From: Phycomyces nitens
Lineage: Eukaryota; Mucoromycota; Mucoromycetes; Mucorales; Phycomycetaceae
NCBI GenBank assembly: GCA_022702545.1
Contig: JAHRBC010000008.1
Coordinates: 1,674,001-1,738,000, forward strand
Direction of reading: 5' to 3'
Length of the DNA: 64,000 nt
Shown: positions 4,683 to 37,829 of the stretch, piece by piece
Numbering within the stretch: position 1 is the first letter of the stretch
Layout: every line of letters begins with the position of its first letter
Notes under the pieces: generated by a model
Databases searched by the model: none
What the model was told of the DNA's origin: nothing
Seen by the model: only the letters and a program-made list of their open reading frames with translations
Position numbers and translations under genes: made by a program

Positions 4683-4685
4683 TAT

Positions 4686-4931: not shown

Positions 4932-4934
4932 GTA

Positions 4935-7152
4935 CACTGCAAAAAATAATCTAAATCATTACAATATTAAAAGTTTATAATTGTAATTTTATGTATTAAT
5001 TTAATATCTGATAGATAAATTTTAATAAATACCCAGTCAGTATGTTAAAGAATAACTGACCAGATATTATATATTAACATGTCAGATTTGAAAATTTGGT
5101 GTGAGCTTAGTTATAAAGATTGTGTATAAACTCTATTCCAAAAGCAAACATACATACTATTACAAATTAAGAATAAAAACATGCACTGTTTGAGAACACC
5201 TGTCTGAGAAGAACATATATCTAGGCATGTAATAACAGCAGTGTTTTGCATTTTTTGATGACAATGATTCGATCAATTGCTTCGGAAAAGCTGTTCTTTT
5301 TGGTATTAATTCTAAAAATAATATTCTCAATTGGAAATTGGTTTGTAGGAATATATTTTTATTTTTATTTTTATTTTGAATAAAAAGAATTGCTCATAAT
5401 AATAATTGCTCTATAATATTTATTCTAATATATATATATAATTCTTGATTGTATGAGAGAGATGTAGATACTTGCTTTATGGATATATTCTATAATAAAT
5501 AGCAAATGCTATTAATATAATTGATTTTGATACTATTAATCAAATTATATAATACCTTGCTTCCTTGATTTGCTTGATATCTTTTTAGAGCTAGAGAATA
5601 TTGTGAGAAAAATTATTAAATATTTATACCAGCTTACTTATTATATATAGTCCTTGGAAATGTTGAATACTTTGATTTAATAAAGGCAAAGACAAACTTT
5701 TGAAATAGAATACTAAGTAGAGATAGCAATGAGTAAGAATATTAAAAAATATTTTTCAAGTATATATACTTACTAGAGGTATGAATTTCTGGAGGGCGGC
5801 TATATAGATACATAACATTTCTAATAGAATATGTATCAGTAAGAATAATAATCAAATGTAATAAAGAACATAGTACTTATCTTTGTATACCAGAATGATT
5901 TTGATTTTGTTTGCCAGGAGTATATATGGCAAACCGCACTTTAGAAGAAGTACTTGGATGATAATAAAAAGTAGAGAAAGAAAAAAAATGGATGAATAAA
6001 AAACAATTCTTGAAATAGCCGTAGAATCTGAGAGATGATTACGTATTTTTTTTTGAAAATAAAAAAATAAAAATATGTTTGTTGTGAATACCAAGTATGC
6101 AAAAAAGGCGATTAACACACTGTGCACAAACCCAGTCTGTAATATTCATTGTACTCTCAGTGCTACATGAATGGTTTAGGAAATAAAAATATAAAAACAA
6201 TAGAAATAGGCATACTCATAAAAGATATTATTTTATAAAACAAATGAATATTTAGTTATATGATTAGAATGAATATTCAAGTAATTAATCAAACTAAAGA
6301 TCTGAAGATATTAAATAATAATTATATATATATCATTGTCAAATCTAGATCTTATAAATATTAAGATAGACAACATTTCTTGATATCAGGCAAGTACCGA
6401 CTGGAACACAGATAGATCCTCTGCTTGATTGATATGTCATAAGAATAACAATTCATTTTTATATTTATAATCAAAATACCCAAAGATTTTTTTCAAGCAG
6501 ACCTTAACACTAAATAGTAAAATGTATGTTGATACTTGAACAGCTATATTTTATAGAGAGATGACTATCAGACATATGCTTACAATTGAATAAATACCAG
6601 AATCTGTAAATCATGAGCCAACAATTAAACAAGGGAAAGAAGAACATGACACGGTGTGTCTCGTTTTGGTTCCGTTCAGACCACGAACATCCTGTAAAAG
6701 TATGATGACTTTTGCAAGATTTCTTTTAAACCCATGTGCAAGAAGTACCCTTGCGCATGGTATAACATCATCAATTATACTTAGAAGAAGTTATAATGAG
6801 ATAGTATAGATTTCTTCAGTATAAAAGGCTTGATATGAAGCAACAATAAAACATCATCTCTATCTACCTTTATTTTTATTGATCAAACCCTGATTTGTAT
6901 CCTTACACATTTATTTCATTGTCACTGACTTATAATCACTCTTCGCAATAATTATAAGCATACCTCTTGTTATATTTGTCTTTTTGTATACATTCTACCC
7001 CAATTTCCTTACTGTTGGATAGACCCGAGCGTTATCACAGTACTTTATCCCTTTTTATTATACATTTTTGCCTTCTGAACTCGTTGGCAACCCTTATTCA
7101 TTTTTATATCTGACAACGTTGCACCACAAAACCAACTCAACACTTGTCAAAC
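4935..7152. other. Left subterminal region of CACTA-2
   Basis: This is AT-rich DNA without a convincing gene. A hairpin with an 11-bp stem and one wobble pair lies at 6732-6760, about 400 bp upstream of the partner gene. In CACTA elements the subterminal DNA normally holds transposase or TnpA binding repeats; I could not define a repeat motif here by eye. Confidence 0.5.
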
Positions 7153-8351
7153 ATGTCTGCAAGAGCGTCATCATCCAGATCACTACTTACCACAGTGAAC
7201 ACTGGTCGTGTTGGTACCCCTCGCCCATTGCTTGCTTCTAGATCTGACGATGTAACAATTCCTAGGAGTGAATATAACACTATGGTTGGCCTTTTATCCA
7301 CTGTTGATAAAAAGTTAACTGGTGTATCAACACAAGTTGGCGCAGTGTATGATAACGAAAGGCAAATGATGTTGTCTCTCAATGGTCTTGTTGCTTGCCA
7401 AGCCAGAGACCAAGTATCAGTCCAAATGCCCGTGGTAGAAAATGATGAGATTGTGAATATCATCCAACCTGAAGATATTCTTTCTGTCTCTAACTCACAA
7501 GTTAGCCTTCAGGATATCGTCAGTGCAACAAGATATCCAAAGTTATCTGTAAGTTCTAAATGAAACAGTAATATCAAAATATATTATTAATATATACTTT
7601 CAGAAAGTTATTCGAGATTACTTGAAAAACTTTCATCTTAAATCAGACGATCCCAGTTTGATCAAGGATAATGAAGAGAAGCCGACTTGGGATGTCAGTG
7701 TTGGATTGGCTGATGATGTCAATCAGAATCTAGCAAACGCTCTGATCATATATGCCCATGAACAGCCTGAATCAACATCAGTAACAGGAAAAGAACTGGG
7801 CACAATAATTATAAATAATTATTATAACCGTTTGGCTGATAGCAAGCTTGTGCCAGAGCTTAGAGAAGCAAAAAAGACAGCAAACCGAAGAGGCAACCAA
7901 AAAACTGAAGTAAGTGAATATTAAATAAAATACGCAAATATTTATATATTATGCTTTGTTTCACTTTAGCTTTTCAAGAGACGAAAGAGAACTTTTGTAA
8001 AGCACAAGGAAGCTGTTGAAAGAAGATTCAACAGGGATGCCAGTGGCATCTTTCATAGAGATGTAATGTCAGATGATGAAACAGACATGGAGATCACTGT
8101 GAGAGTACTTCGTCTGAACTGGAGGAGTGATGAGGTAAAACACAGGCAGATTGATATTTCTTATATTTTATGTCTAATGATAAAATATATCTGTATAGCT
8201 GAATGAGCTGTTTGACTTTTTGGACATGCTTGCCAAAAAAGATCTAGGAAAGAAAGCCAGTCAATTGAAGACTCGTCATTACGTAGTCATGCAAAAGACA
8301 ATTCCTCGCGGCTTAGTAGCCAAAATTCCCGCATGGTCAAAATGTGAATAA
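7153..8351 (+). CDS. CACTA-2 partner protein (about 339 aa, four exons), function unknown
   Basis: Exons 7153-7548, 7604-7909, 7970-8134 and 8199-8351 join in frame to 340 codons. The first ATG is 7153. I do not recognise a named domain. The N-terminal third is Ser/Thr-rich with a possible coiled-coil stretch. Exon 2 starts KVIRDYLK. Exon 3 is basic, then acidic, and ends in LNWRSDE. Exon 4 ends with a (V/I)P-x-G-(L/M)-V...P-x-W motif. The gene at 16064-17288 has the same four-exon layout, a second exon of exactly 306 nt and the same WRSDE and C-terminal motifs. In both elements this gene is convergent with the transposase (here 100 bp between stops). By position it could play the role of plant TnpA, an end-binding accessory protein, but that is inference from context. 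Confidence 0.75.
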
Positions 8352-8450
8352 ATCAACAAGCATCTCTTTTTCACTCCTTCATCTATATTGATTTTGGCAT
8401 ATATATATTGCATATTTTATGTAAGAAAGTCAAAAATAATAATAAGAAGA

Positions 8451-11042
8451 TTAAGCATAAATTTTTCTAGGCAATGGAATAACAATGACTTTGGCTGCAC
8501 CACGGCCAGAAGCTTGATTGCCGATTGCAATTGGGGATAGAATTCGATGAACTGGTAGAATGTTGTCATAGTCATATTTCTGAAAGGTTGGCTTATACAT
8601 ATCAATTCCTTGGTCTATTCTTGGCTGATGTTGAAGAACTTCGTACCATTCAACAAAAGCAAAGACATGCTGAGGATTGAGCCTTGTCATAAAATTGTCA
8701 TGGGTGGGTTTTGGGCAAAAGTTGTGGGCAAAAAGATACTTGATATAGCCAGCATAGGTATAGCTTGACTCACTATTTTTCTTGATATATATAGCCTGGA
8801 TATATGACCCTCTTGTGTTTGACCCTTCACCACTTTTGTAGACTTGGCCAAGAAGATTAATGTATGGAATCTTCTGGATTTGGTCATTTACAAAATTTGA
8901 GCTCTGGACCACACCTTTGGCACTTTGCAAGAGATTGTCTTGGTACTCAATGCGATAGAACTTGAGAAGGCAATTGTACTCGGCCGTTCTCATTGTTGTT
9001 GGCTCTTGGAGTTTTAATGGCAAGGCTGATGGTGGAAGAGACTCATTTCCCAATATGGATATTTCAGTTTCGGTTGCAGAGTCAACAAACGTAGGCAAGT
9101 GAAATATGGTGATCATATTGTTTTGGGCAGGGATTGTGGCATAGGTTTCTGTTATACTGGTAGACAGTTTTTGGAAGAGGGAGAGGTGAGATGGGTTGGT
9201 GAGGGTGGTGAGGTGTGATCTGTAAAAATTGCCCTTTGATGCATTTTCGATGAATTTATCCATATAGGTTTTTTCAAAGCCATTCTTCTTGTTCGTGTTG
9301 AAACCTTTGATTAGGCCATTGTATTGTTCGAAGCTAAAAAGCCAGTATCCGTATATTGGGCCAAAATCTTGGATCGTTTCTTTCAGGTGAAGGTGAAGGT
9401 GCATATTGGGCGATAGAAGATCAGGTTCATACAATTTCTCACATCCAATGCAGAATTTCTCTAGACTGTTGTGAGCTTGGCTTAACTCTTCATCGGTGAT
9501 ACTTGGCTTTGTCAACAATCGGCATGCATCAACAAAATGGATCCAGTTGACAAAAAGATCATTGCATAATCTGGACTTAAGCACGACAGGAGAATATATC
9601 AAGCACCAGGATTTCCATTCATCGGCTTTCATGAAAGGAAATCCCTTTCCAATCTTCGTAGTCAATGTGGTATAGTCTGGTGGCAGAGTCATGGTATTTG
9701 CTTCGTTTTGCATTTCTACAAGATCATGGTCATTGAGAAGATTGTCGAATAACCATTTTTCAACCATTCTCTTTGCAGTTCCCAGGAAAAGGTTGTGCAT
9801 TGGATCAATTATGGTTGATCGTATGGGCTCAAAGTATCCTAGTCGATGAAGCTCTGACCAGCAAACCCCGTTTTCAACCTCCAATCGTTTTCTCTCCACA
9901 TTAGTTGCTGCATTCTTCCACATAATAGCATGCTTCAGATTTTCTTCTTTGGTTCTGCCTGTCCATTCAGAAAACTTGAAGCCAGAATAATCAACGATGT
10001 TGGTACCTTCAAACTGATGGAAGTGGCGATTACACTTATGGCATGCATTTGTACTGTTGTGCGAAGTGAATCCACAAGTTTTTCTTGCAGCAGGTATATC
10101 ACATGCAACCATTAGCAGAGCAGCATGGACCAGAGTCTTGGAGCAGGTGTGGGTGTTGATATAGATGCCTGTGTACAATTCTTTAAGCTCATCAACAAGA
10201 GGCCAAAGATAATTATTTATCTCTGAAGTGCTGGCTTCTTTTGGTCCAGGCATCAGACCCACAAGTATGACATTCTCTGCCTTATTTCGCTCTTCTCTTG
10301 GGAGGTTGTTGATCGTCAGGTATATTGCTCCACAGGAATATGTCACCCCATCAAAGGGTTGGAACCAATCGATGTTGAGAGTGAGCAGCAATGACCTTTT
10401 CTTGGCAACAAATTGTAAACTAGCTTCATCCACGAACTCCTTCCACATTCTTCCATTGTATACGTCAAACATTGTTCCAGCAATCTTTGGTCCACGGTTC
10501 CACTTGTTGATTTGATTCTCAAACGTAGGGCGCTGGAACAATTTTTTCAAAGCTGTTTTGAGGGAGTTATATACATATGTGCGGTTTGGTCTCAGAGTTT
10601 TACTGTTGCTGATTTTGTACAATGCATTTCCACACTCTCTATTGCTTCCAAGTTTCTTGAAGTCGCATGTACTAGGAGCTCCATTAACATCACTGAAGAT
10701 ACTATGACAATTTCCACATGCTACATATTTTGACATGCCACTTGTCAAGTCGCTGAATCCACTCATTTTCTTCAAGCCAGGAATACTAGTAGGAAGACGA
10801 AATTCCTCGCCATAGTGCTCAAGAACCGAATTGATAAAGGTAATCAAAATGACACTGCCTTCATCAACAACAAAACAAGATATAAACATGACAATGAACA
10901 CTGTTATCAGTCGGTGCCATGGATCTTGAGGGAGGTTTGGTAAATTATCTATAGTTTGATTGAGCCGCATGTTAATATATTGCTTTTAGTAATAACATTA
11001 TCCTTTTTTATTTTGCACCTGTTTCTTCATCCTGGTCCTGCT
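8451..11042 (-). pseudogene. Tnp2-like transposase of CACTA-2, 3' portion (gene split by E1)
   Basis: The large last exon (8451-10948) encodes the Tnp2 catalytic region with NIDWFQPFDG, VACDIPAARK and DPMHNLFLG, the acidic candidates for a DDE/D site, followed by the NMHLHLHL...SFEQYN block and a C-terminal tail ending PLPRKIYA. An intron (10949-11018, GT-AG) joins it to an acidic exon fragment at 11019-11042. That exon is broken at 11042 by retrotransposon E1 and resumes at 37098, in frame after removal of E1 and one CTGCT. The Met-Arg-Leu-Asn reading at 10970 therefore lies in an intron and is not the true start. Apart from the insertion I see no stop or frameshift in the last exon. Confidence 0.85.
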
Positions 11043-11269
11043 TGTGGTAAAACCACCTTTAAATACTATTACAAATTGGCTTAACAAAAACTAAGTAACA
11101 AAATCCACTCAAGTAGATTTAAGTTACACTAATATCTAAAAGCCCTATTAACACCCAGTCAAGTATTTATACACAAATCCTACAACAGACAGAATTTTAG
11201 TTTCTCTTTTACTTTGAGAAATAAATATCAAGTAAAATTGACTTATCGTGTTTTAGTAATTTTGCTACA
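11043..11269 (+). repeat. E1 5' LTR (227 bp)
   Basis: It begins TGTGGTAAAACC and ends TTTTGCTACA. Bases 11043-11225 match 24050-24232, and the last 44 bases match 37049-37092. The right limit is set by the end of that second match and by the CTGCT duplication. Confidence 0.92.
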
Positions 11270-11331
11270 CTTTTTTCAATTTCAATATTTCCCTTTTCAA
11301 AATATTATCAAAAGAGAAAAAATTCTGTCAA

Positions 11332-12542
11332 ATGGTCAACCATTCTGAAAATATTTCTACCGCTGAAGCTACCCTCAATAACCAGGTAGCCCAACTATCA
11401 GTTACTGAGGATGTAGAGATGGCGGAATCAATTTTGTCCAACAAGACAGAATTGATGAAAGAGGACAACTCCTCTACAAAGGAGTTGACCGATGAGGAGA
11501 AGAAGAGCAAGTACAAACAAGACTCTCTTCGTCAATGCATCAGATCTACTGAGCAGGAGTTGGACAACATCCAATTGGAGATGATCAACATCGCCACAAG
11601 ACCAGGACTACAGTCCAAGGAAGAGAGACTTGCTGAGGAGGATCTCCAACAGAGGACCGTTCTCTTAACCACGAGACTCAAGTTATTTTGGGCTTCTATG
11701 AAGGAGGAGGAAGAGAAGACCAACAGGCTGTTGGAAGATGATTCGCAACCCGGCGGATACAAAGGAGCAGGGAACTGCATGTACTCACTTAGGGACATAT
11801 CCAAGTTCCAAATCCATGCCATGAACATGGTGTACTTTCCCGGTGAAATGGTTTACGAGGATGTGAACACATTTGCCGTCGCCTACGAACTCTTTCTGAA
11901 TCTATCAGGATTGGGTGGAAAAACAGGATGGAAGAAGCTATTAATCATGGTTTTTCATGCGACTTTCCACCATTGGGTGCAGGAAAAACTGTGTTTGGCT
12001 GAGTCATGGCAGGAAGCCAAGAAGATGATGGAGGAGAAATTTAACTCCAACATCGCCCGTGGCAAGAGCAGGCTCAGCATCCTGTTCATGTCAATCCGAG
12101 ACGATGAATCGGTGGAGGTCTACTCCATGCGTTTCTTGAAGGAGGCTAACAAGGCCAGGTTCAACAGCGAGGACACGACCTTGGCTGAATTCTTTTTGAA
12201 GAGTTTACCATCGTCATGGTACGATCCCATCTTCAATAACCTGAGCACAGGCAAGGAAGACGTAAGCTTTGTCAAGACGATTGACCAGGTCACCCAAGCC
12301 GCCAAAAGAGTTTCTGCCCCGCGTTACAACAAGGGAGACAAGAGGAAATTCTCGAGGGAATCAAACGACCTCTTCTGCAGTGCTCACGGAGGCTACACCG
12401 CAGATCACGATGAGGAGAATTGCAGTCAGGCCAAGCAAGGCAAGAGAGTGAGAAGGGAGCTGGTCTACCACGATGAGGCCAGGTCAAATGGCAACAAGCC
12501 AAGAAACCTGGGCTCGAAGAACCTTCCGTACCGAGCCACCTC
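11332..12542 (+). pseudogene. E1 gag portion of gag-pol, cut by CACTA-3
   Basis: The first ATG after the 5' LTR is 11332. The product is a Gag-like protein with a charged N-terminus, a helical capsid-like core around residues 150-330 and a basic tail with a Cys/His cluster (CSAHGGYTADHDEENC). It would form the virus-like particle in the cytoplasm. The native frame stops at 12542, where CACTA-3 begins. Beyond the insertion, after one CTC duplication, the frame continues at 19900 without shift, so gag and pol were a single ORF. The apparent C-terminus that runs to 12582 is read from the inserted transposon. Confidence 0.85.
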
Positions 12543-12785
12543 CACTGGGAAAACGGTGGGCTATTCTACTGTGCACAGTTAACTGAGAACGTGGAGAAAG
12601 CTGAAGCAAATTTGCAACTCAACACGTTTTTTTTGTGATCACCTTGAAAATATTGTTTTATTGTATTTAATTGGCTCAGATATAAAGAACAGGAGATAAT
12701 ATTTTTATACTCTTATAAAACCGTAGCAAATAAAGCATATGTAACACTTGTTTCCTTTTTGTTTAAACTTTAATACACAAATACC

Positions 12786-15700
12786 ATGTCTTCTACTTCC
12801 GATGTCTACAATGAGAAGTGCTTTTGCCCTAGATGCAGTACAAGCAAGAATGGTTACAGTCTTGTCCAGAAACTGACTGCTCAACGTCATGCAAAGAGAG
12901 CAAGATTAGAGCGTCTTGAAAATTGCGAAAGGGGCAAGTTACTTTTGTAAACACTCTATGAATTGTATCATAATATATTTTACTAGAAATCTCCTCTCAA
13001 CGCAATATGATAGATGTTGATTTTGAATGTAAGGATTATTTATTGGCATAGCAACAGAAACTAAATAACTACTATATTCTATATCTGGCTACCTTGTTCC
13101 ATAAAGTCGGGTCCTCAGATGTACTTGGTGATCAGGAGAACTCGCCGTTTTTGGAAGCCGATCCTTTTGCCAATCATGGCGAAATTGGTGCTGACAATGA
13201 GGCTAATGCCGATGCCGATGCTGATGCCGATGCCGATGAGAATGAGATGAACGGTGGTGATGATGACGACGAGGGCGATTTGGAAGAGATCGAAGTTGAG
13301 GAGTTGGATGGTGAAGGTCAGTGTTAAATAGAGAAAAAGCCTAAAAAATTGGGTGTTAATATTTTCCATTTTAAAATAGATCCTTTTGCCTCCCCCCAAA
13401 TGCCTGAAAACCCAGTGCACAGGTTCATCGCCATTTCTGTTGTCCTGTTTGCATCCCGTTATGTGGTTGACAAGGGCGCCGTTGTCTTGATCGAGTTTGT
13501 CAACAAGCTCTTGACAATCTATGATCAAGATTTCCAACTGCCCACAAGCCTGCTTGGTCTGCAGCGCATGACAGGATTTTCAGCCATGTCCCAAGGAATA
13601 AGGAAATCTGTTGTGTGCCAGGATTGTCACAAGGTGTACGAGGAAGCTGGGTCTGTTCCCCTTCGGTGTGATTTCCAGAAGCCAGGAGCACGTTCCTCTT
13701 GCGATTCCCAGTTGATGAAGGTGTCATCATCAGGTGCTTTGGTAGCCAGACGCCAATACAACTACCATTCTGTCAAGCAGGCGTTGAGAGTGTTTTTCCT
13801 CCGCCCAGATTTCGAAGCAAGAATCCGCCATTGGAACAAGGAGCTGAAGGTCGAAGACACGATGTGCGATGTGTACGACGGCGCCATGTGGAAGGAGCTC
13901 AAGGACTCGAATGGTGTTTCTTTCGTCCAAGACCCACGTTCTCTCATGCTGACATTGAACGTTGACTGGTTCCAGCCGTTCGATGGGGTGACCTATTCCT
14001 GTGGTGCGATCTACTTGGCCGTCAACAATCTTCCTAGGGCTGAGCGATTCAAGGCAGAGAACATCATTCTTGTTGGACTTATGCCTGGGCCCAAGGAACC
14101 AAAATCTGACGAGATCAACCACTATCTCAAGCCGTTGGTGGACGATTTGGAAGAGCTGTACGTTGGTGTGAAGATGCGAACTGCCGAGTGTTCATCAGGT
14201 GTTACCGTCCGTGCTGCGTTGTTTATGGTGGCGTGCGACATTCCAGCTGCCAGAAAGACGAGTGGGTTTACTTCCCACAACAGCACCCATGCATGCTTCA
14301 AGTGTAGTCGTGGTTTCTCTCGTTTGGACGGAACAAACAGCGTTGACTTTCGTGGCTTCGACTCTGCACAGTGGTCCCTTTGCAGTGGTGTCGAAAATCG
14401 GTTGCATGCTGAGGTGTGGAAGAGTGCCAGTACGCCCTCAGAAAGGCATCAGCTGGAAATCGAAAATGGCGTTCGATGGTCCCAGTTGCATCGCCTTGGA
14501 TACTTTGACGTTGTTCGCTGCATGATCATTGATCCCATGCACAATCTCTTCTTGGGTACGGCCAAGCGAATGGTCGAGAGGTGGATTGACGATGGCCTGA
14601 TCACAGACCATGATCTTGCTGCCATGCAAAAGACTGCCGAGTCTATGGTTCTGCCGGCCGATTATGCTGTCCTCAAAGGCAAGATCGGAAAAGGCTTTTC
14701 CTACATGAAAGCAGACGAGTGGAAGTCCTGGGTCCTCGTATACTCTCCAGTCCTGTTGAAAGGTGTGCTCCCTCCTGACAACTTCAACAACTGGATCAGC
14801 TTCGTTGATGCCTGCCGCCTTTTGGTCAAGCCAGCAATCTCGTTTTCCGAGGCAACCGATGCCCACGATTTCCTGGAAACGTTCGGTCGAAGATGTCAGT
14901 CCCTATATCCTGCGAATCTTCTCACTTGTAACATGCACCTACACCTTCATCTTCATACCATTATTCGTGATTTTGGACCAGTGTACGGTTATTGGCTGTT
15001 TTCATTTGAGAGATACAATGGATTGTTAAAAAACATCAAGACCAACAGACGAGACGGCTTTGAGTCCACCTACATGAAGAACTTTATTAATAATGCATAC
15101 AAGGGCGATTATGTATCTTCTGTTCTCCAATGTCCCAGTCAAACCCCCTTCCGCCCCTTTATGTCCAAGCTTACCTCCTCCTCCTATGCCCCATCCTATG
15201 CCCCATCCCATGCCTCCTCCCATGCCTCCTCCTATGCCCCCTCCTATGCCATGTCTCAAGGCCCTTTCCGGTTGAGAGCATTTATGCAAGCCTCTATGAA
15301 TCCACTCTCTATCAAAGGCAACGAACCTCTCCCTCCTTCTGCGTTGCCACTCTCTATGAAACCGTATGAATCAATGAACGACCTTGAATATCCCTATCTC
15401 TTGGAACACTATAAGCTCGTATATGCAAAGCCAGATTTAGTGGATTACCGACATGCCTCATCTTCGCCGTATTTTGTTGACAACCAAATATGCAAGATCG
15501 CGTCTATCGATCTCCTTGGCCAGTCATACAAAGGCAAGAAGGGTACTGTCGGTCATGGTTCTTATGTTCAAGCTCTGTTCTCTGGAAATGACAACGAAAA
15601 TCCGACTGCGTACACAGGCGAGATTCAATATATGTTTGTCCATTCCCAGTCTATGCCCCCTATGTCTCATGGCCGACTAAATCGTCATCACAATAAGCAA

Positions 15701-15919
15701 CATGTTTTCGCGTACGTTCGCTGGTTTGTCTTTGATTCCGAGCGTACAAGAGAACATGAAAGTATTGACATTTGTAGGCCACAATTTTCTCCAGCCAACT
15801 ACCACAGTATTGTGCCTGTACATCGCATTCTGTTAGAAGTAGCACTGGCTGAACATATGACCCAAAATAATGTAAAGAAGATACTGGTTATCCCTTTACC
15901 TAAAAAAATATATGCTTAA
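12786..15919 (+). CDS. Tnp2-like CACTA-3 transposase, four exons, 979 aa
   Basis: Exons 12786-12933, 12987-13028, 13107-13316 and 13380-15919 total 980 codons in frame. Intron 1 uses a GC donor (GCAAGT); the others are GT-AG. Exon 1 encodes a Cys/His module (CFCPRC, then TAQRH). Exon 3 is acidic with an Ala-Asp repeat. The last exon carries the Tnp2 domain: NVDWFQPFDG (Asp near residue 329), ACDIPAARK (Asp near 420), DPMHNLFLG (Asp near 518), then a DUF4218-like GYWLFSFERYN block near 675, and a Ser-Tyr-Ala-Pro repeat encoded near 15180-15250. It should cut the element at its CACTG ends. Stop-to-stop distance to the convergent partner is 145 bp. The gene is visibly richer in GC than the surrounding DNA. 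No lesion is seen, so it may be functional. Confidence 0.87.
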
Positions 15920-16063
15920 GTTTTAATAAAATATGTCTTTACTCATTTTTAAACAAGATTGCATACCAGAATAAAATAAACAAGTATAGGATTTGAATGA
16001 GTCTTTAGGATTGAGTGCATGAGAGGAGCAAAGATGAGGTTTTTTTATTTTTTTTTAATTTTT

Positions 16064-19896: not shown

Positions 19897-19899
19897 CTC

Positions 19900-23920: not shown

Positions 23921-24049
23921 AACTTTTATTTTTCACATTTTTTTTTTTTTTTTTTATCCAAGTCGGTTTTTTTTTTGTTTTGTTTTGTTTTTTTTGGATT
24001 ATTAGACTAACAAGTCGTTTCAATCATAATTGAACCTGGCTGGGGGGAG

Positions 24050-24232: not shown

Positions 24233-24245
24233 GGTTGAATGAAGG

Positions 24246-28316: not shown

Positions 28317-28327
28317 ACCTTCTCCCT

Positions 28328-29143
28328 TTACTGGGTGTGTGCGTTGTCTTTTAACTGCTTCAACCAGCGGCAGTTCTTGACAACGTGGCCTTCCTTATCG
28401 CAGGCAAAGCACTTGGCCTTCGACCCAGTCTTGGTTCTGGTTTTCTGGTTCTTGTGGGTAGTGACATCGAGATCCATTGGTACTGGTCCAGTATACGGGT
28501 TTCCTTGCAGAGGGGCCAGCGGGACTTGGTTGGGAATGAAGTGAGCGCTTTCATACGTGAGTGCTGCTTGCTGTGCCGATGCCACTAGCATTGGGTCGTA
28601 GGTTCGTACGTGTAGTTGCACCTGTGGTTGGAGTCCTCGGACGAACCGGTCGAGAGCTTCGTCCTCTGTCATGGCCGGGATTTCCAAGCGTAAGTTATTG
28701 AAAATCTGACAGTACGAAGCTACTGAGTGTGTCTGGCTCAACGTAGCGAGTCTGTCTCGGGCATCACGGTGGGCGTTCAATGGGACGAACTCGGCTGTTA
28801 GTTTGGATTTGAAGTCTTCCCAGTTTTCAGGCGCTGCCTTGGTCTGTTCCTGGATACGCCACCAAACGTCGGCTTGGCCTCTCAGAAGGGTTGCGGCGTA
28901 GAGTACTTGGCGTTCACCTCTCAGGCGTACAAACGCGAAGTAGCGTTCTAGCGATCGAAGCCAACCTTCAACCATAGTGGTACTGCGTTCCCCTTGGAAC
29001 ACGTCCGGTTCCCTGACCTTGTAGAGTGGAGACGACTGGGATGGGGCGGGAGCTTCACTCTGTTTACGGAGGAGTTGGGTTACGGCTGCCATGGACGTTT
29101 CGAGTGCCTGGCGCCACTGGTTTACTTCTTCAGGAGAGGACAT
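28328..29143 (-). CDS. E2 Gag (271 aa) with CCHC zinc knuckle
   Basis: The ATG is at 29143, close to the primer-binding site. The protein has a retrotransposon Gag core (WLRSLERYFAFVRL...WWRIQEQ...LDRFVRGLQPQVQ) and ends with one CCHC knuckle (CFACDKEGHVVKNC) that would bind the element RNA during packaging. The stop lies 12 bp before the start of the annotated pol frame. It is related to E3 Gag at 33729-34850. Confidence 0.93.
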   Translation of the reverse strand: MSSPEEVNQWRQALETSMAAVTQLLRKQSEAPAPSQSSPLYKVREPDVFQGERSTTMVEGWLRSLERYFAFVRLRGERQVLYAATLLRGQADVWWRIQEQTKAAPENWEDFKSKLTAEFVPLNAHRDARDRLATLSQTHSVASYCQIFNNLRLEIPAMTEDEALDRFVRGLQPQVQLHVRTYDPMLVASAQQAALTYESAHFIPNQVPLAPLQGNPYTGPVPMDLDVTTHKNQKTRTKTGSKAKCFACDKEGHVVKNCRWLKQLKDNAHTQ

Positions 29144-29144
29144 C

Positions 29145-29163
29145 TTGTTCTTCAGCTACCAGT
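29145..29163 (-). promoter_or_regulatory. E2 tRNA primer-binding site
   Basis: Directly inside the 5' LTR the minus strand reads ACTGGTAGCTGAAGAAC. The core TGGTAGCTGAAG is shared with E3 at the same position and would pair with a tRNA ending CTTCAGCTACCA. I did not assign the tRNA species. Confidence 0.7.
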
Positions 29164-29494
29164 TGTGAACGCGCTGGTTAGTCTTCTTGTTACGCGGGAG
29201 GGGATTCAATTAGAACTAACCAGGTGTTCGATGAAAGTGTGATTATAAGGGTTTTGGGGTAGAAACAGTGTATGAGATTTGAGACTGTAGTTGATTGGTG
29301 TCTTTTATTTCAAGTTATTTGTCTTGCTTTTATATTGTTTCTATCCTATGTTTTACATCATTGTTTTATCATTTGCAAAGGTCTACTAAGTCTTTTTCTC
29401 TTTCTACTGACGTTATTAGTTCTACACTAATTGTCTTTAGTTTTGTTGCTATGATTTTACTCTTTCCTCATTTTCAAGTTCCGTCGCACCGACA
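29164..29494 (-). repeat. E2 5' LTR (331 bp)
   Basis: It is the partner of 24246-24576. It carries the element promoter and the transcript start, which I did not map. Confidence 0.95.
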
Positions 29495-29899
29495 AAGGTT
29501 GCCGGGGTTTTCGGACCCAGATTTAAGTACCGATTTGTTAGTTATATCAATGAATATTCAAATTCAAGATAAAGTTTTTAATGCAAATGTGACTAGTTTT
29601 TAATTTTATATCCAATAATATAATTTATTTTTATTTTGATATTTTCTCTATGAATATTACTCCTATTTTGATAAAAGTTATATCATTCGTTCTGAAATTT
29701 TTTTGTGATCAATATCAATATATAACAAGCATATAATACTTTGTCAGAAAAACTATCTATAGATTATAATAAAAAGTTAAATTAACAAACCATGTTTTGT
29801 GCTAGTTATATATGAAAAAAAATAAAAATTACTAAATTATAAGTATAGTCTAGTTGTAAATTTTTTACTTATCAAACAAATGGCCCATGTTCAATTCAT

Positions 29900-30210
29900 T
29901 GTCGTTCCTGATCTGGGATGGTCTTCCTTTTACTATAACAAAGCCAAAAGGTCAATCCCACTGGGGAAACAGGAGTATACGTAAAATCAAAGAGAGGATA
30001 AAAGATACTTTTTATTATTATGACTTTGGTTATCTTATATAGTTCTCTAACTAATACTGCGCATTATCCGCAGTAGTTATTATATGATATTTTCATAAAA
30101 GAAGAGACATTGTACTGCGGTTAATGCTCAGGAAGATGTTACTGCGCATAAAGAAGTACTGCGGTTAATCATCTTCAGATTTTACGGATTCATCAAAATA
30201 ATGTCCGACA
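29900..30210 (-). repeat. E3 3' LTR (311 bp)
   Basis: It is flanked on the left by TCAT and matches 34887-35197 except for one base. It holds several short GCGCA and GCGGT motifs (ACTGCGCATTA, ACTGCGGTTAA). Confidence 0.95.
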
Positions 30211-33200
30211 TCACCCTCCCGAAACTGTTGATAGTCCTCGATCAACCACAGAGGAATCCACAAGGGAAAACGGCAAGGCAGAAGAGGCATCCAAGACAAG
30301 GTCACGGCGCATCTGGGCACGGGCAGGGGTTGGGTGATACCAGGTATTGTGAAAATCATCGGATTTGGCAATCTTGAGGCGATCGGCATGGACCCAGGAG
30401 GTATAAGGCACACCCTCCATGGTAGTGAGCTTGTATATGTTCTTTTCAAAGTTCTTGTCAACGACAATGTACGGTCCCATCCAGTTGTACTCTAAGCCAA
30501 ATTTGTTCTCATGTCGTAGCAACAAATGCTCACCAATTGCAAACTGATGCGGTTTCATAATGGAGTCCCATCGTTCCTTGTCTTGTTGACTATTGGCGGC
30601 TACTCGAGCATCAGCATCTATGCGAGCTTGTTGGAGATTACGAAGAAAAGGAATGGCCCCATCAGAAACAAGAGCAGGATCATTGGGAATCGATGTATCC
30701 ATGAATGGGCGCAAGGGATCACCGGGAATACGGGGTTCGCGACCATATGTCAAGAAAACGGGCTAAACCCAGTCGTGCGGTGCTTTCTGATTCGGCAAGC
30801 CCAAAGTGAAGTCTCCAGATATTCGTCCCAATGATGTATAGCTCCATGGACATATTTGCACAACATTTGTTTGAGGATACCATTTAATTGTTCACATTTC
30901 CCATTGGTCCGGGGGTGAAAGGCAGAAGTCAACTTGTGGTGCAGCTTGATCTTTTGAATGTAGAATTTTAGGATATGCGACATAAAGTTGGCACCACGAT
31001 CAGTGAGAATTTCGTCAGGGCAGCCAAAACGCATAACGATTTCTTCGTACAGGAAGTTGGCGATGGCTTCACCAGTGGCAGCAGGGACAGCACGGGCAAT
31101 GGGCCAGTTAGTGGCATAATCAACTGCAACAAGAATCCAACGGTTTCCATTTACGGTAGTGGGTAGTTCTCCAATGAAATCGAGATGCCAGCGTGAGAAT
31201 GGGGGAGGAATATCCAGTGGCTCCATCGGTGCATGGTGGATGTTACGTTCCGCGTTGGAAGCCAATTGGCATTGAGGGCACTTTTCCAACCATTCTTTAA
31301 TCTGACTTCGCATGCCTGGCCACCACCAACGTTTCTTCATGAGATCGTATACCGTGGTTTCACCAGCATGTCCAAAACCATTGTGGAAGTTGTTTACCAG
31401 ATCGGCACGCTTTGTGAACAGTGCAAATCGAATCTCTTGAATGGTGTCACCAATCTTAACCAGTCTGAACACCTTCTGTTCCCGGACTACGAACTTATTG
31501 CGTTGTCGATTTAGTAACTCTTTGATATCTTCTGGCCATTCATCTTCGGTACGAGCATAGAATTTCGGCCAATCGGAAGTCTGTGTGTCTGGCATAGTGT
31601 ACAAGTATTCGGGTTCCATGGAGTCAATCGCAGAGGCATCAAATTCGGGACCGTCCATTCGGGAGAGTACATCGGGAACACCGTTATCCTTGCCTGGCTT
31701 GTATTGGATGATAGGGTCGTATAGTTCAAATTCAGCAATCCATCTTACTAGGCGAGGAGTTGGCTTCACTTGGCTGCGGAAGTACTTGAGTGGGAGGTGG
31801 TCTGTGTATACCGTGAACGGCTTTCCTTCGATCATACACCGCCATGTACGCAAGGCGTGTAAGATACCCAGTAGCTCGCGTTCTTGGGCCGGATACGATC
31901 TTTCAGCGGTAGATAACTTCTTCGATTCAAACGCCAATGGTTTCCAAATTCCTTCCTCATCTTCTTGCATTAGAACAGCACCAACACCGAAATCCGAGGC
32001 GTCAGTTTCAATACGGAACGGTTTGTCCATATCAGGGGCTAGGAGTACCGGTGCTGTACTAAGTTTTTCCTTGAGGATGTCAAAACTTGCCTGACATGTG
32101 TCCGTCCATACAATAGGGCGTCTCTTCGGCCCTGTGCCTTTGGTGAGATCCGTTAATGGGGCAGCAATTCCAGCAAAACCAGGAATAAAGCGTCGGTAGT
32201 GTTGTGCGAGGCCAATAAATTGCCGGACTTCTTGTACATTGGAGGGGCTATCCATTCTTGTATGGTCTTGACCTTGTCCGGTGAGGGAAGTATGCCTTGT
32301 GCTGACACGTTGAAACCAAGGAAAGTTAGCTCCTTCTTGTTGAATTCACATTTCTTGAGGTTGGCAATCAACTTGGCTTCACGGAGGCGGTTCAACACAT
32401 GGCGTACATGTTTAGCATGTTCTTCGGGGTCTTGCTGAATATGAGGATGTCGTCCAAATATACCAAAGCAAACTGGTCTAAGCAATCTCCAAGAACCTTA
32501 TTCATGAGGTGTTGGAAAGTTGGCGGGGCATTTGTCAGACCAAAAGGCAGGACCAGGAACTCGTATTGACCATATCGGGTGTTGAATGCGGTTTTCGGCA
32601 CATCAGAGTCTTGGATACGTACTTGGTGGTAACCACTCTTCAAATCCAGACTTGTGAAATGGTTTGACCCGCGGAGCCGTTCCAAACACTCGTCAATTCT
32701 TGGTAAGGGGTGGTTGTTACGGACAGTAACCTTGTTCAAGGCACGGTAGTCAACACACATTCTCATTTCGCCGTTCTTCTTTTTCACAAACAATATAGGT
32801 GCACCCCAAGGTGATGAGCTTGGACGGATGAGGCCGAGGTCTAAGAGTTCTTTCAATTGTTTCTTGAGCTCGTCGAGTTCGCGCGGGCTCATCTTGAACG
32901 GTGGTTTGTTAACAGGGTATGCATCGCCAGTGTTTATTACATGTTGAACATCACGGCTTGGCGGTAATCCGGGCAAACCATCTTGGAAAACGTCATCAAA
33001 CTCTTTCACCAATGATGTCCATTGCTCGTCTTTTGTCATTTCACCTTTCTCGCTCTTGATGTGCAACAAAAAGCATTCAGCCTCCTCCCTCCGAGAGAGT
33101 TTCTGGACTTGCTTGGCAGATATGAGGTAGCCCAGGTGAGGCTTCATCGGGCGGTTACCATAAGGACGCAGGACAAATTCATAGCCATCACGCGAGAGTA

Positions 33201-33717
33201 ACCAGCTGTCACTATGCCAATCGGGAACGGGTTTGGCATTCTGCAACCATGTGCGTCCGAGGATCAGGTCGAATTTGGTGGGGAACACGAAGGCATCAAC
33301 AACATCATTATAGCCGTTAAGAGAGAGAGTTAATGTGGCTTTTCGATTAATATTAATGCTGTGTCCGCCGGCAGTTTCAACTGATCGCCCAGGGATATCC
33401 GTGACAAGTGTGGCTAAATGAGTGATTTGCGGGGATACGTAGTTTGCACTAGCACCACTATCGACGAGAACCAATATCTGTTGTCCATTGAGTGTAGCAG
33501 CATACAGAGGGAGATCGGTATCCACAGCAGAGTGAAGATCTTCAAGAAAACTTTGATCGGCGGTGAGACAAGGGTCACAGTTCTCTTCAGAAATAGTCTT
33601 GTTCTCTTCATTGGTAACAACTTTATACTGGTCACAAGTTTCTTTATTACTCAAATGTTCAATAGGCTCATTATTGATACTGGCCTGTGGGGAGGAATTT
33701 TCTTCCATTGTACACAA
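30211..33717 (-). pseudogene. E3 pol, frameshifted
   Basis: The reading runs in pieces 33717-32392, about 32430-32240, 32255-30750 and 30753-30211. The protease ([12 protein letters not shown]), RT (YLDDILIFS), RNase H, integrase zinc finger and core (DFIGEL, LTDRGANF, NGKCEQLNG) are all recognisable. Frameshifts lie near 32430 (between RT subdomains), near 32240 and near 30755, the last apparently one base lost in a T-run. The first ATG is near 33708; like E2, pol is in another frame than gag. The integrase has Glu in the third catalytic position. The lesions make this copy non-autonomous. Confidence 0.88.
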
Positions 33718-33728
33718 CCGACCTCCCG

Positions 33729-34850
33729 TTACGGTTGTGTTTCGTGAAAATCCTGCTTCTTTCGGTGCTCCTCATCCAACTGCTTAATCACAGCCATGCG
33801 TTGTCTGCAATTCCTCTTGATATGGCCGGGCTTGCCACACCAATGGCAAGTAGCACTGGTTCGTGCTGGCTGGGGACGGGACTGGTAGTTGTTGCGGCGG
33901 CCATTGATTGCATCCAGGTCCATGGGCTCGGGTCCACTATACTGCTGGTATTGTGGTTGGTACTGTGGCTGGTATTGTTGAGGCAATGGGGCAGGCGTGT
34001 ACATTTCTTGTTGACCAAGCTGGAGACCACTGGCATATGCCAAGGCAATGTTACAGGCATCGTCAACGTCGACAGGGCGGGCAGCAAGGACATTACCACG
34101 CACACTTGGGTGGAGACCTCGAACAAACTTGTCAAGAGCTTCTTCGTCGTTCATCCCAGGAAGCTCCAACTGGATGTCTTGGAAGGCATCGATGTACTCG
34201 GCCACAGTTCCTCTTTGGTATAGTCTTGCGAGGCGGTCCCTAGAGGTCTGTAACGAGTATACTGGGCGGAATTCTCCTGAAAGAGCAAGTCTAAATTCGT
34301 CCCAGGTTGTTGGATGCTTCTCCTTGAGTTCCATTCGTCGCCACCAAGTGTCGGCTCAGTCACGCAGCAGGTTCACTGCAAAATCACAGGCTCTGGTGGG
34401 GGTGAAATTGTAGTACTTGGTGTAACGTTCGACTGCGCGCAGCCAACCATCGACAACTGCGGCAGATCGTTCTCCTCTAAAACAATCTGGTTGTTTTATA
34501 CGTTCTGCTCGCGAGTCTTGCTGTGCAGTTACTGCCTTCATCGCTTCAGCCACAGCTGCTGCTATGGCTTCGGCTGTGACTGTGACAGGTGGAGGGGCCA
34601 TTTCTTCTGGTTTTCTGTTCTTTCCTGTTAGTGTCGCGGCAAGGTGTTGGGCAAGTTCGGACCACTTTTCTTCTCGTGCAGGAGTACTCTTGATTCTTTG
34701 TTCTTCGGGTACGTATGGTACACGCCGGTTCTTCTTATAGTCGGTTACTAGTTCGCTGGGTAACAAGTTCTGGACTCGTTCTTCAATCTCGAACTGGCTA
34801 AGTGTTTTGTTGTCAAGTGTTTCTTGGTGTCTTTCAACCGGATTCATCAA
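33729..34850 (-). pseudogene. E3 Gag with one in-frame stop
   Basis: The ATG is at 34850. The frame is constant, but a TGA at 34356-34358 cuts it between LLRD and ADTWWRR, a conserved stretch of the Gag core. The rest continues to 33729 and includes a Gln/Tyr-rich region and one CCHC knuckle (CHWCGKPGHIKRNC). The stop is compatible with a CGA to TGA change. Without the stop it would be about 373 aa, longer than E2 Gag because of an extra N-terminal region. Confidence 0.88.
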
Positions 34851-34886
34851 AATTTATTAGGAGGAAAAATAGCTTCAGCTACCAAT

Positions 34887-35197
34887 TGTCGTTCCTGATC
34901 TGGGATGGTCTTCCTTTTACTATAACAAAGCCAAAAGGTCAATCCCACTGGGGAAACAGGAGTATACGTAAAATCAAAGAGAGGATAAAAGATACTTTTT
35001 ATTATTATGACTTTGGTTATCTTATATAGTTCTCTAACTAATACTGCGCATTATCCACAGTAGTTATTATATGATATTTTCATAAAAGAAGAGACATTGT
35101 ACTGCGGTTAATGCTCAGGAAGATGTTACTGCGCATAAAGAAGTACTGCGGTTAATCATCTTCAGATTTTACGGATTCATCAAAATAATGTCCGACA
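34887..35197 (-). repeat. E3 5' LTR (311 bp)
   Basis: It matches 29900-30210 except for one base. The right flank TCAT (35198-35201) is the target duplication. Confidence 0.95.
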
Positions 35198-35260
35198 TCA
35201 TGGTAAAGTCTTTTTTAATAATTTATATATAATTTTTTATATTTTAAAAAATATTTTATT

Positions 35261-36446
35261 TTAATCTTCAGCATATTCTTCATTATTATCATAAACAAAT
35301 TCAAAATCTGTAAATATGGCAGCTGAATTTATATTTCCAAAAGAAACTTCTCTTAAGGTTTTAAGTAAACCTTCCCAAAGTTTACCCTCATACTTTCTTC
35401 TCCAAATGAATTCCATGAGTAACCAAGGCATCATCTTCTTTGTTTTCAATCTGGGAGAACAGTTCATTTTTATCCCATTCCAGAGATCTATAAAATAATT
35501 ATTAAATATATATTAATATTATATTATAAGTTTATCTTCAATTGTGTTGGTGTGTACACTATCACTTGTCACATACTCAACACTGTGATTAACAGTTTTA
35601 TGAGTATAATTACTGTTAATCACTGATTCCAGTCCTCCATATGCAGCCCAGCAATCAGTATAAATAATACTTTCTGGTCTGACATACTTCTTTATTATTT
35701 GAAGGAGAGTTTCAGCATCTCTCTGGGGGACTGTCACCAAAAATGTCTTTCTGTCTGCTGTTCTCTCAATCCCTCCAAGAACCCAAACACCTTCAACACG
35801 GTGGCCTCTGTAGTATTTTCTCTTGCCAAACTTGCTTTCATCAATTTCAACAATGATAGGATTACCATTGCTGTCTAATCCACTTATTTTTTATATTAGT
35901 ATATAGATCATATATAAATAAATAATTATATTACTTACCAATTTGAATGTTTTCATTCATTAGATCCATTTGAATCAGCTGATGGATCCCAGAAATCAGA
36001 TTTCTGGTACTTTCTGGAGAACACCCAAGCATGCTACTAATTGTCATTCTTGGGATCTTGTTTAACCAGTAAAACATGCCTTCTAGGACCAGATTTACAG
36101 GAAGATGTCTCTTGGCAAAGAAAGAATCTATTCTTTCTGTTTTTCTCTCTCTTCTGCAGCACTGTTGTCCTTGGATGTTTGTACCACTGCATCTGTAGCT
36201 GAATCCCCCATCTCTTTCAAAGATATATCCCATGGGGCTTCCACCAGAACAAGTAAAAATTGGGTGGTTTCTTGGATAATACACCCCCATAGCAATTAAA
36301 TATCTATTAATTTTTTAAATTAATAAAATATATTTAATATATAATTATACTTACTGCTTAGTAGATTCAATATCAATTGTAGTCATTGTGATCCATCTTG
36401 TAGTTGGCAGTGAAGGGAAAGAAAGGTCTTGAGTAGTGATTGCCAT
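35261..36446 (-). CDS. Merlin / IS1595-type DDE transposase, four exons, about 340 aa
   Basis: Exons 36355-36446, 35939-36303, 35536-35874 and 35261-35487 total 341 codons in frame. The N-terminal part has a Cys-rich motif (FTCSGG...YRCSG...QQCC) resembling the zinc ribbon of IS1595 transposases. The catalytic core shows VEIDESKFGKRKY, YTDCWAAYGG and HTNTIE...WNGIK, the family's acidic residues. A conserved LMEFIWRRKYEG tail follows. The third intron starts with AT instead of GT (GAAG then ATAAAC). That may be a splice-site mutation and could disable the gene. It should mobilise elements ending in GG with 8-bp duplications, which fits the element around it. Confidence 0.87.
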
Positions 36447-36569
36447 AATTATAAAAAGATGAACTTGTAGAAAGAAAAGTAAAGAAGAATAGTAAAAATT
36501 AGATCTCTATTTATTAATTTATCTAAAAAACCAGTCATATAAAAATTAAATTTTTGTAACTCCTATATA

Positions 36570-36690
36570 CCAGTCACTGTTTTATGACTCATTTATACAA
36601 GTCACTTGTTTATGACTCATTCATACCAGCTGCTATATTATAACTCATTTATATTAATTAATATATTGTGACTTATTTTAATATAATTAA
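36570..36690. repeat. Degenerate tandem repeat, about 4 units of 30 bp
   Basis: The motif (ACCAGTCACTGTTTTATGAC, then TCATTTAT) recurs four times with substitutions, upstream of the Merlin transposase and inside the element. Such subterminal repeats could be transposase binding sites. Confidence 0.65.
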
Positions 36691-37048
36691 ATTTATATAT
36701 ATTTTTATAAATATCACTTATTGATATAATTCATAAGCTATCTACTATATATAAAAACATTTTGAAGTATTTCATTGTGACGCCTATTTTATGACGAGTC
36801 TTTTGACTATATATACATTACTCTAAGCCAAATATTGCAAAAGATATTTATATATTTAATATATTTTTTTAAAATTTTAAAACTATTATAAATCAACTGA
36901 AAATTAAGCTGTCACAGCCAAATTTATATGAGCGGAACTATTTTTTTTATAATTTTTAACTTTTGTAATGTCTATAATCAAAATCAAAAAACGCGGAGTT
37001 TAAATCTGACCTTTAAAACCCCATCAACCTTTAGAGATCCGAAATAAA

Positions 37049-37092
37049 TATCAAGTAAAATTGACTTATCGTGTTTTAGTAATTTTGCTACA
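37049..37092 (+). repeat. E1 3' LTR, last part (44 of 227 bp)
   Basis: It matches 11226-11269. It is preceded by the Merlin duplication GAAATAAA (37041-37048) and followed by the E1 duplication CTGCT (37093-37097). Confidence 0.92.
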
Positions 37093-37097
37093 CTGCT

Positions 37098-37586
37098 CTT
37101 CATCGTCATCACTCTTCTCATAGTCTTCAGAGTCAGAGAAAGCATCAATATATTCTTCACCTGTTCCAAAAATAGACTCTTCTACTGAAAGAGGTAAGAG
37201 AAACTCTATAGTCTCAATTGGTAAAGGTGTACCAGGAGAAGAAATATTGTCTATAGATACACAATTTAAATACGGTTGAATACCCCTTTGGTAAATAAAA
37301 TAAAATTACACTCAAAACCCTCATCAGCCTGGTCTATTTCCATAGTATTATTGATGGTGTTTACTTGGCTTGAATATGCTATTTGGTTTGGATTATATAT
37401 TATTATTATTAAGGTCTATATTTCTGTAGCTTATTTACTATTAATCTGACTGTTAAACAATTTGTCCTCATCGCTTTGGACATGGCAAGCTGCAGTTCTT
37501 TTGCTCGTCATTGTGAAGCCAGAATGATTGCGAGAGCATTTCGAGCATCTGCATTGCACTTCATTGGAATTACGAATGGAAGACAT
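37098..37586 (-). pseudogene. Tnp2-like transposase of CACTA-2, 5' exons (rest at 8451-11042)
   Basis: The ATG at 37586 starts a Cys/His exon (CRCSKC, then TAACH) like those at 2579 and 12786. A small exon near 37320-37350 (MEIDQADEGFE) and an acidic exon (about 37098-37256, with ESIFGTGEEYIDAFSDSED) follow, as in CACTA-1. The exact donor of the first intron is unclear. The acidic exon is broken at 37098 by E1 and continues at 11042. The N-terminal half of the gene therefore lies 26 kb from the rest. Confidence 0.8.
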
Positions 37587-37826
37587 TTTTCTTGTTACTT
37601 AGTATAGTAAAGAAGGAGTACAAAGTATCCAGTACTAATAGTTAAAAAATACTTTTTTACTTGAGAATATTAAATCAGATGATTGAATATCATTCAGCTA
37701 ATAAAAACATTCAAATCAATCTCTATTATTAATGCAAGATTTTGCCTGAGTTATAAATATTTTTACTCATGTTATTGATAATTCCAGATAACTATTAAAT
37801 TATGATTTAAATTGATTTTTGCAGTG
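37587..37826. other. Right subterminal region of CACTA-2
   Basis: This is the 240 bp of AT-rich promoter-side DNA between the transposase start and the right terminal inverted repeat, which ends GCAGTG at 37826. Confidence 0.6.
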
Positions 37827-37829
37827 GTA

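What the first reader, a model, noticed from the sequence alone, without database searches (positions are those of the whole stretch)
4932..37829. Six-element nested transposon complex resolved by target-site duplications
Every boundary has a matching duplication: CACTA-2 (GTA) > E1 (CTGCT) > CACTA-3 (CTC) and Merlin (GAAATAAA) > E2 (AAGG) and E3 (TCAT). Stripping the layers restores the E1 gag-pol frame, the 227-bp E1 3' LTR and the CACTA-2 transposase gene. A 33-kb stretch is thus one insertion site. Gene predictors would report unrelated fragments here; the two halves of one gene lie 26 kb apart.
Basis: seen in the sequence. Interest (0 to 1): 0.88.

Follow-up and report, generated by a model that had tools for sequence, protein, structure and literature searches.

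The report
Nested transposons; one targets tRNA genes
Six mobile elements lie one inside another in a mould genome as first read, and one of them belongs to a family that lands just behind tRNA genes and has repeatedly hit one exact spot in a DNA transposon carrying tRNA-like signals.

Summary
The nest is real. All six layers and duplications are confirmed, and copies elsewhere in the genome show each site uninterrupted: CACTA-2 (1 locus), E1 (19 of 19 other CACTA-2 loci fetched), CACTA-3 (10 of 10 close E1 copies fetched), Merlin (the E1 5' LTR), E2 (13 loci), E3 (15 Merlin copies). The host is a Phycomyces (nearest protein P. nitens, 95%). Such nesting is ordinary.

E3 and a relative, E3B, sit mostly 16-51 bp downstream of tRNA genes: 18 of 41 sampled flanks hold a tRNA, 18 of 18 with the LTR on the 3' side. 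Of 20 tRNA genes read, 10 have an E3-class LTR within 200 bp downstream, 0 upstream. Sampled E1, E2 and CACTA-2 flanks show no tRNA. The Merlin site is a hotspot: 6 of 22 readable Merlin copies carry an E3-class LTR within the same 8 bp, in both orientations, with three different duplications. It coincides with Merlin's best A-box/B-box pair at tRNA spacing, though that pair is weaker than any tRNA's. A 2018 review knew downstream-of-tRNA retroelements only from dictyostelids. The Merlin decoy mechanism is inference.

The parts
4932..4934 (+). CACTA-2 left target-site duplication GTA
4935..37826 (-). CACTA-2 (ends CACTGCAAAAA; tnp2 transposase on minus strand), split by E1
37827..37829 (+). 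CACTA-2 right duplication GTA
11038..11042 (+). E1 left duplication CTGCT (right copy 37093-37097)
11043..37092 (+). E1, Ty3/gypsy LTR element with chromodomain; 227-bp LTRs, 3' LTR split by Merlin
12543..19896 (+). CACTA-3 in E1 gag, duplications CTC 12540-12542 and 19897-19899
24233..37040 (-). Merlin DNA transposon (IS1595-type DDE), duplications GAAATAAA 24225-24232 and 37041-37048; split by E2 and E3
24246..29494 (-). E2, Ty3/gypsy LTR element, duplications AAGG 24242-24245 and 29495-29498
29900..35197 (-). E3, Ty3/gypsy LTR element of the tRNA-downstream group, duplications TCAT 29896-29899 and 35198-35201
29846..29856 (+). A-box-like TAGTCTAGTTG in Merlin (highest-scoring A box of the element, both strands)
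29861..29866 (+). T6 run between the boxes (possible Pol III stop; inference)
29889..29897 (+). B-box-like GTTCAATTC in Merlin (second-best B box of the element); the E3-class insertions fall in or beside it

Best explanation
SHOWN: a six-element nest formed in the order CACTA-2, then E1, then CACTA-3 and Merlin, then E2 and E3. SHOWN on standing insertions: E3 belongs to a high-copy, recently active set of LTR retrotransposons (E3, E3B; names coined here) that sit about 16-51 bp downstream of tRNA genes with 4-bp duplications; active targeting is the plain reading. SHOWN: these and a third LTR family (E3C) have inserted repeatedly into one 8-bp stretch of the Merlin transposon. INFERRED (about 0.5): Merlin carries a tRNA-like internal promoter (A and B box at tRNA spacing) that recruits Pol III factors, so the E3 integration machinery takes it for a tRNA gene; Merlin is thereby a mobile landing pad, and E3's place in the nest follows from targeting, not chance.
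For: Nest. tRNA link: 18 of 41 E3/E3B flanks hold a tRNA, all 18 with the LTR on the 3' side; by element 14 of 17 E3 directly, a fifteenth after reading the other side (L152) and a sixteenth through an LTR cluster (L153), and 4 of 10 E3B directly. tRNA-centred: 10 of 20 downstream, 0 of 20 upstream within 200 bp. Controls: 0 tRNA in 11 E1 loci and 20 CACTA-2 loci, one flank each of about 1.3-1.5 kb; 0 in 5 outer E2 flanks of 4 elements (the sixth, L097, is internal E2). Hotspot: 6 of 22 readable Merlin copies occupied; duplications TCAT (4), CAAT, AATT; both orientations; three LTR families. The E1 and E2 insertions seen in Merlin lie elsewhere. Promoter: the best A+B pair of both Merlin strands lies at the hotspot, spacing 42 (28 tRNAs: 42-45); 0 of 300 dinucleotide shuffles as high. 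Insertions lie 8-46 bp past the first T4 run after 17 of 18 tRNAs; the Merlin ones lie 35-39 bp past its T6 (counted). Precedent: Dictyostelium TRE5-A integrates at A/B-box loci without a tRNA (PMC5391098, passages).
Against: No tRNA is called at the Merlin site by ARAGORN (10 loci) or Rfam at E up to 1 (3 loci). The Merlin A+B score (17.6) is below all 38 tRNAs (21.0-41.5), and stretches of E1 (23.3, 21.1) and the right flank (17.7) score as high without being known E3 targets. The B box alone is only second best in Merlin, and 53 of 200 shuffles reach Merlin's best B score. The insertions fall inside the B box, not 16-51 bp beyond a tRNA-like end. The T-run argument was made after seeing the data. 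Six of 10 E3B elements had no tRNA in the 220-bp flanks; of five followed further, three still had none, one of these on one side only. In the tRNA-centred sample 10 of 20 tRNAs had no E3-class match.
Confidence: 0.75

Rival explanations
1. The Merlin hotspot is due to local DNA sequence or structure (a CCATG-TTCAATT-CATGG hairpin, or an AT-rich open gap) recognised by the integrase itself, unrelated to Pol III.
For: Insertions are precise to a few bases and lie inside the palindrome; the composite promoter score is not exceptional across transposon DNA; one E3B site without a tRNA, L116/L117, shares TCAATTCA with the Merlin site.
Against: The families that hit it are the tRNA-associated ones; 15 E3/E3B sites read on both sides show no common duplication.
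Confidence: 0.35
2. The six occupied Merlin copies descend from few insertions multiplied with Merlin or by segmental duplication.
For: All copies belong to one small family (27 copies as I grouped the 41 rows).
Against: Family, LTR strand and duplication differ: at least five classes (E3 plus TCAT; E3B plus TCAT; E3B minus TCAT; E3B minus CAAT; E3C AATT) on six contigs; E3 and E3B LTRs are 73% alike over about 120 bp and not aligned beyond. Outer flanks of the occupied copies were not compared systematically.
Confidence: 0.07
3. E3 elements are found downstream of tRNAs because upstream insertions are purged, not because of targeting.
For: Only standing insertions were examined.
Against: A 16-51 bp window in a 49-Mb genome needs targeting before any selection; unrelated repeats reach close to the 5' end of 8 of 20 tRNAs, so upstream insertions seem tolerated.
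Confidence: 0.05

Closest known systems
Skipper-2 (Dictyostelium Ty3/gypsy, 8-23 bp downstream of tRNA genes; passages of PMC5911963 and PMC5006619)
   Same: LTR retrotransposon of Ty3/gypsy domain order inserting just 3' of tRNA genes
   Different: Skipper-2 is a chromovirus of social amoebae; no chromodomain was found in the E3 C-terminal piece; the host is a fungus; many E3 LTRs are identical, whereas D. discoideum Skipper-2 copies are described as highly degenerate
Ty3, Tj1, Tyl6 of yeasts (table in PMC5911963)
   Same: Ty3/gypsy elements tied to Pol III genes
   Different: they insert upstream, near the transcription start; E3 inserts downstream
TRE3 and TRE5-A of Dictyostelium
   Same: TRE3 lands downstream of tRNA genes; TRE5-A also uses A/B-box loci lacking a tRNA
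   Different: non-LTR elements; those A/B-box loci lie on the rDNA palindrome, not on a transposon
Nested transposon clusters of plants and fungi (recalled)
   Same: layered young insertions resolved by duplications
   Different: one layer here seems explained by targeting

Membership tests
CACTA (CMC) superfamily: CACTA-2, CACTA-3 | tnp2-type transposase | tested here: met
   PF02992 3e-16 and 8.7e-23
CACTA (CMC) superfamily: CACTA-2, CACTA-3 | CACT-type inverted ends and 3-bp duplication | tested here: met
   CACTG ends, GTA and CTC; the fifth base is G, not A
Merlin | IS1595-type DDE transposase, 8-9 bp duplication, inverted ends | tested here: met
   PF12762 3.2e-17; GAAATAAA; similar ends read by eye
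Ty3/gypsy | integrase after RT/RNaseH, TG..CA LTRs, short duplication | tested here: met
   for E1, E2 and the E3 pieces, each piece searched apart
Skipper-2 | chromodomain at the integrase end | tested here: not met
   E3 C-terminal piece 30211-30762 has no chromodomain at E 0.01, only a weak MLVIN_C match
tRNA-downstream retroelements (by behaviour) | insertions in a narrow window 3' of tRNA genes | tested here: met
   18 of 18 tRNA-bearing flanks, out of 41 flanks, on the 3' side; 10 of 20 against 0 of 20
tRNA gene at the Merlin hotspot | tRNA fold | tested here: not met
A/B-box Pol III locus at the Merlin hotspot | A and B box motifs at tRNA spacing | tested here: inconclusive
   best pair in Merlin at spacing 42, 0 of 300 shuffles as high, but below all 38 tRNAs and matched by stretches of E1
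A/B-box Pol III locus at the Merlin hotspot | TFIIIC/TFIIIB binding | not testable with these tools
   needs ChIP or binding assays

The most novel reading that the evidence does not exclude
A fungal group of LTR retrotransposons evolved integration downstream of tRNA genes, and a Merlin DNA transposon carrying a tRNA-like Pol III promoter acts as a mobile decoy target for them, so that one transposon steers where others nest.
Probability: 0.45. Interest if true: 0.75.

Novelty: new variant of a known kind. Interest (0 to 1): 0.55.

Why it matters
A 2018 review (PMC5911963, passages) describes downstream-of-tRNA insertion of retrotransposons as found only in dictyostelid genomes and not in S. 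cerevisiae, so a young, abundant fungal case would give an independent origin in which to ask which Pol III component is used. A DNA transposon as a recurrent precise target gives a natural series of occupied and empty sites for mapping the recognition signal, and suggests that part of transposon nesting may be targeted.

Tried and rejected
Considered and dropped: that Merlin is a hotspot for all elements alike. Its bodies are split often (13 splits over 1 kb in 11 of 27 copies as I grouped the 41 rows), but the other inserts whose ends I read (CACTG-ended in L061, L063, L064; E1 in L062; CACACC-ended in L057, L058) sit at scattered places. A shared duplication for E3/E3B at tRNA sites: none in 15 sites. 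A tRNA gene at the Merlin site: none. A second Merlin family to test conservation of the boxes: the search listed only this family (28 matches). A/B-box pairs at E3B sites without a tRNA: scores 7.4 or less, and 8.4 or less with three E3 flanks added, each flank scanned apart. Literature on Phycomyces, Mucorales or Mucoromycota tRNA-targeted elements: nothing on point in the listings (10 of 42 papers shown); the library is open-licence PMC only. The decoy idea in print: the listing gave nothing on point. (Merlin, CACTA, nested, fungi) likewise.

Limits: the genome searches scored 40 of 95, 40 of 82, 40 of 43, 40 of 275, 40 of 252 and 63 of 2276 candidates. E3 and E3B flanks were taken from the best-scoring, nearly identical LTRs, so older copies are not represented. 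The tRNA-centred sample took the top-scoring tRNAs, leaving out contig C2 and three places (C7:1987684, already read as positive; C4:5543837 and C4:5560265, near known E3 LTRs); it kept three whose E3-class neighbour was already known (C4:685975, the tRNA of L101; C8:2918315; C8:2919116). Only hits at E 1e-4 were counted. One search prints each tRNA twice (two ARAGORN runs parsed together), so its '36 of 41' is 18 of 41 flanks; its orientation labels are not used. L098 and L099 proved to be internal E3 sequence and were left out of the 41; L106, L107, L114, L115 and the 69-base L080 were also left out. L097 is internal E2 and is not counted as a control flank. The degenerate LTR in L065 near the Merlin site is counted among the 22 readable copies but not among the six. 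Plus and minus for LTRs mean the LTR strand as read in the window; E3 and E2 are coded on the minus strand there. L055's LTR was called E3B-like by eye.
Full report
Observation. The window is part of contig C10 of a 49-Mb, 11-contig genome. A protein coded at 58918-60540 is 95% identical to a Phycomyces nitens protein and 73% to one of P. blakesleeanus, so the host is taken to be a Phycomyces.

Empty sites. Nothing was cut out of any retroelement; I used other copies. CACTA-2 left (to 11042) and right (from 37093) pieces are contiguous, with the five bases CTGCT shared, in 19 of 19 other loci fetched. The outer flanks of CACTA-2 are contiguous with a single GTA in one locus, L049. E1 pieces on both sides of CACTA-3 are contiguous in 10 of 10 close E1 copies fetched, L007-L016; L016 is 94.7% identical and lacks the first part. 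The more diverged E1 relatives L017-L023 also run across but differ at the site itself. Merlin pieces on both sides of E3 are contiguous in 11 loci and four more were read directly. The uninterrupted Merlin left end (E2 site) occurs in 13 loci. The E1 5' LTR shows the unsplit Merlin site. Phase arithmetic across CACTA-3 agrees with one CTC kept. LTR pairs: the E1 pieces match without a difference over repeats of 183 and 54 bases that overlap by 8, E2 0 differences in 331, E3 1 in 311. The elements are young, so fast layering is the plain reading.

E3 is linked to tRNA genes. Twenty-five E3 LTR places, the window's among them, match over all 311 bp with the top score, and several lie 45-70 bp from another LTR, which suggested a common target. 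Flanks were fetched and scanned. Of 17 E3 elements sampled, 14 have a tRNA in the flanks read; a fifteenth has one on the side read later (L152 tRNA-Thr), a sixteenth has one beyond an adjoining E3B LTR (L153 tRNA-Asp); the last lies beside another E3 whose far side has a tRNA-Cys. E3B, an LTR family 73% alike over about 120 bp, has a tRNA directly at 4 of 10 elements; two more lie in or near LTR clusters with a tRNA within about 600 bp (L159, L161); two have none within about 1 kb on both sides (L154-L157); the remaining two were read on one outer side, one of them out to about 1 kb (L163), without a tRNA. In all 18 directly scored cases (14 E3, 4 E3B) the LTR is on the 3' side of the tRNA, 16-51 bp away in 17 and 92 bp in one where another LTR piece intervenes. 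LTRs occur in both orientations. Elements read on both sides give 4-bp duplications in 15 of 15 listed; the pair L080/L081 was not in that list and its two flanks do not match.

tRNA-centred test. Twenty tRNA genes off contig C2, taken by covariance-model score, were read with 200 bp on each side. Ten of 20 have an E3, E3B or E3C match downstream, beginning 14-58 bp from the tRNA in nine and 113 bp in one; 0 of 20 have one upstream. Three of the ten were known or suspected beforehand, and three other places, one already positive and two near known E3 LTRs, were left out. Controls by the same tRNA finder: 0 of 11 E1 loci and 0 of 20 CACTA-2 loci, 0 of 5 outer E2 flanks.

The Merlin hotspot. Grouping the 41 rows by place gives 27 Merlin copies (my grouping). 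The E3 site could be read in 22: 15 empty, 6 occupied, 1 (L065) with a degenerate LTR close by. Occupied: the window (E3, TCAT), L055 (E3B-like solo LTR, TCAT), L086/L126 (E3B, TCAT), L053/L127 (E3B, opposite strand, TCAT), L051/L129 (E3B solo LTR, opposite strand, CAAT), L088/L128 (E3C solo LTR, AATT). All lie in GTTCAATTCATGG. With three families, two orientations and three duplications, at least five classes of insertion are distinct. E3C also occurs near tRNAs or in the same LTR clusters (L144; L154, L155, L160, L163). The chromodomain element E1 (L062) and the element E2 (this window) have entered Merlin at other places.

Why there. The site lies in a T-arm-like palindrome (CCATG TTCAATT CATGG) whose GTTCAATTC fits the B-box motif GTTCRANNC used for Dictyostelium (PMC5391098, passages). 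Scoring Merlin with A- and B-box profiles made from local tRNAs (38 distinct sequences), the best A box of both strands lies 42 bp upstream of this B box, the spacing of real tRNAs (42-45), and the pair is the best in Merlin (0 of 300 shuffles as high). But the B box alone is second best and not above shuffles, the pair's score is below that of all 38 tRNAs, other transposon stretches score as high, and no tRNA is called. Geometry also differs: at tRNAs the insertion is beyond the gene, in Merlin within the B box. A possible reconciliation, made after the fact, is that insertion is set by the Pol III stop: tRNA-side insertions lie 8-46 bp past the first T4 run in 17 of 18, and the Merlin ones 35-39 bp past the T6 between its boxes. 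I hold the Pol III decoy at about even odds, against a purely local DNA preference.

Comparison with print. [quoted passage not shown] cerevisiae; the fungal Ty3/gypsy cases in its table (Ty3, Ty3p, Tj1, Tca8, Tyl3, Ylt1, Tyl6) are upstream. PMC5006619 (passages) gives the Skipper-2 windows and its chromodomain. E3 shares the behaviour but not the chromodomain. The listings showed no paper on such elements in Mucoromycota; that is an open-licence library only, so priority is not settled.

Verdict. The nest as reported is correct and ordinary in kind. The surprising part is the tRNA link of E3 and the recurrent precise site in Merlin.

Noticed in passing
L132, L135, L136, L138, L141, L145, L150, L151 (upstream 200 bp): 8 of 20 tRNA genes have repeated sequences reaching to within about 10 bp of the tRNA 5' end, of several families; most end like TACAACACCYGTGTCA. 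Perhaps a second, upstream-targeted guild of elements.
   Followed up: partly
window 2932-4686 and 44124-45881: Direct repeats of about 1.76 kb, 94.7% identical, about 41.19 kb apart, flank the whole nest; nature not determined.
   Followed up: no
window 42784-42953: 99% identical to the last 170 bp of CACTA-3 (19727-19896) and ends TTTTTGCAGTG: a further CACTA end right of the nest.
   Followed up: no
window 255-1606: Sequence 67-68% identical to the transposase regions of CACTA-2 and CACTA-3: another CACTA element at the left edge.
   Followed up: no
Merlin copies: 13 splits of more than 1 kb in 11 of 27 Merlin copies (my grouping) over 1.84 kb, against 1 split copy in about 31 close copies for a 738-bp CACTA-2 stretch (40 of 82 candidates scored): Merlin seems interrupted unusually often.
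   Followed up: partly
L093 (C4:11781-12040): The flank of one E2 copy looks like E3C LTR sequence, so E2 may have entered a tRNA-linked LTR there.
   Followed up: no
G000 contig C2: tRNA genes recur at about 66.9-kb spacing (for example 65666 and 132568); C2 may be mitochondrial DNA assembled more than once.
   Followed up: no
window 30211-34853: The E3 copy's coding region appears as several separate frames, whereas E2 keeps a 1287-aa frame.
   Followed up: no
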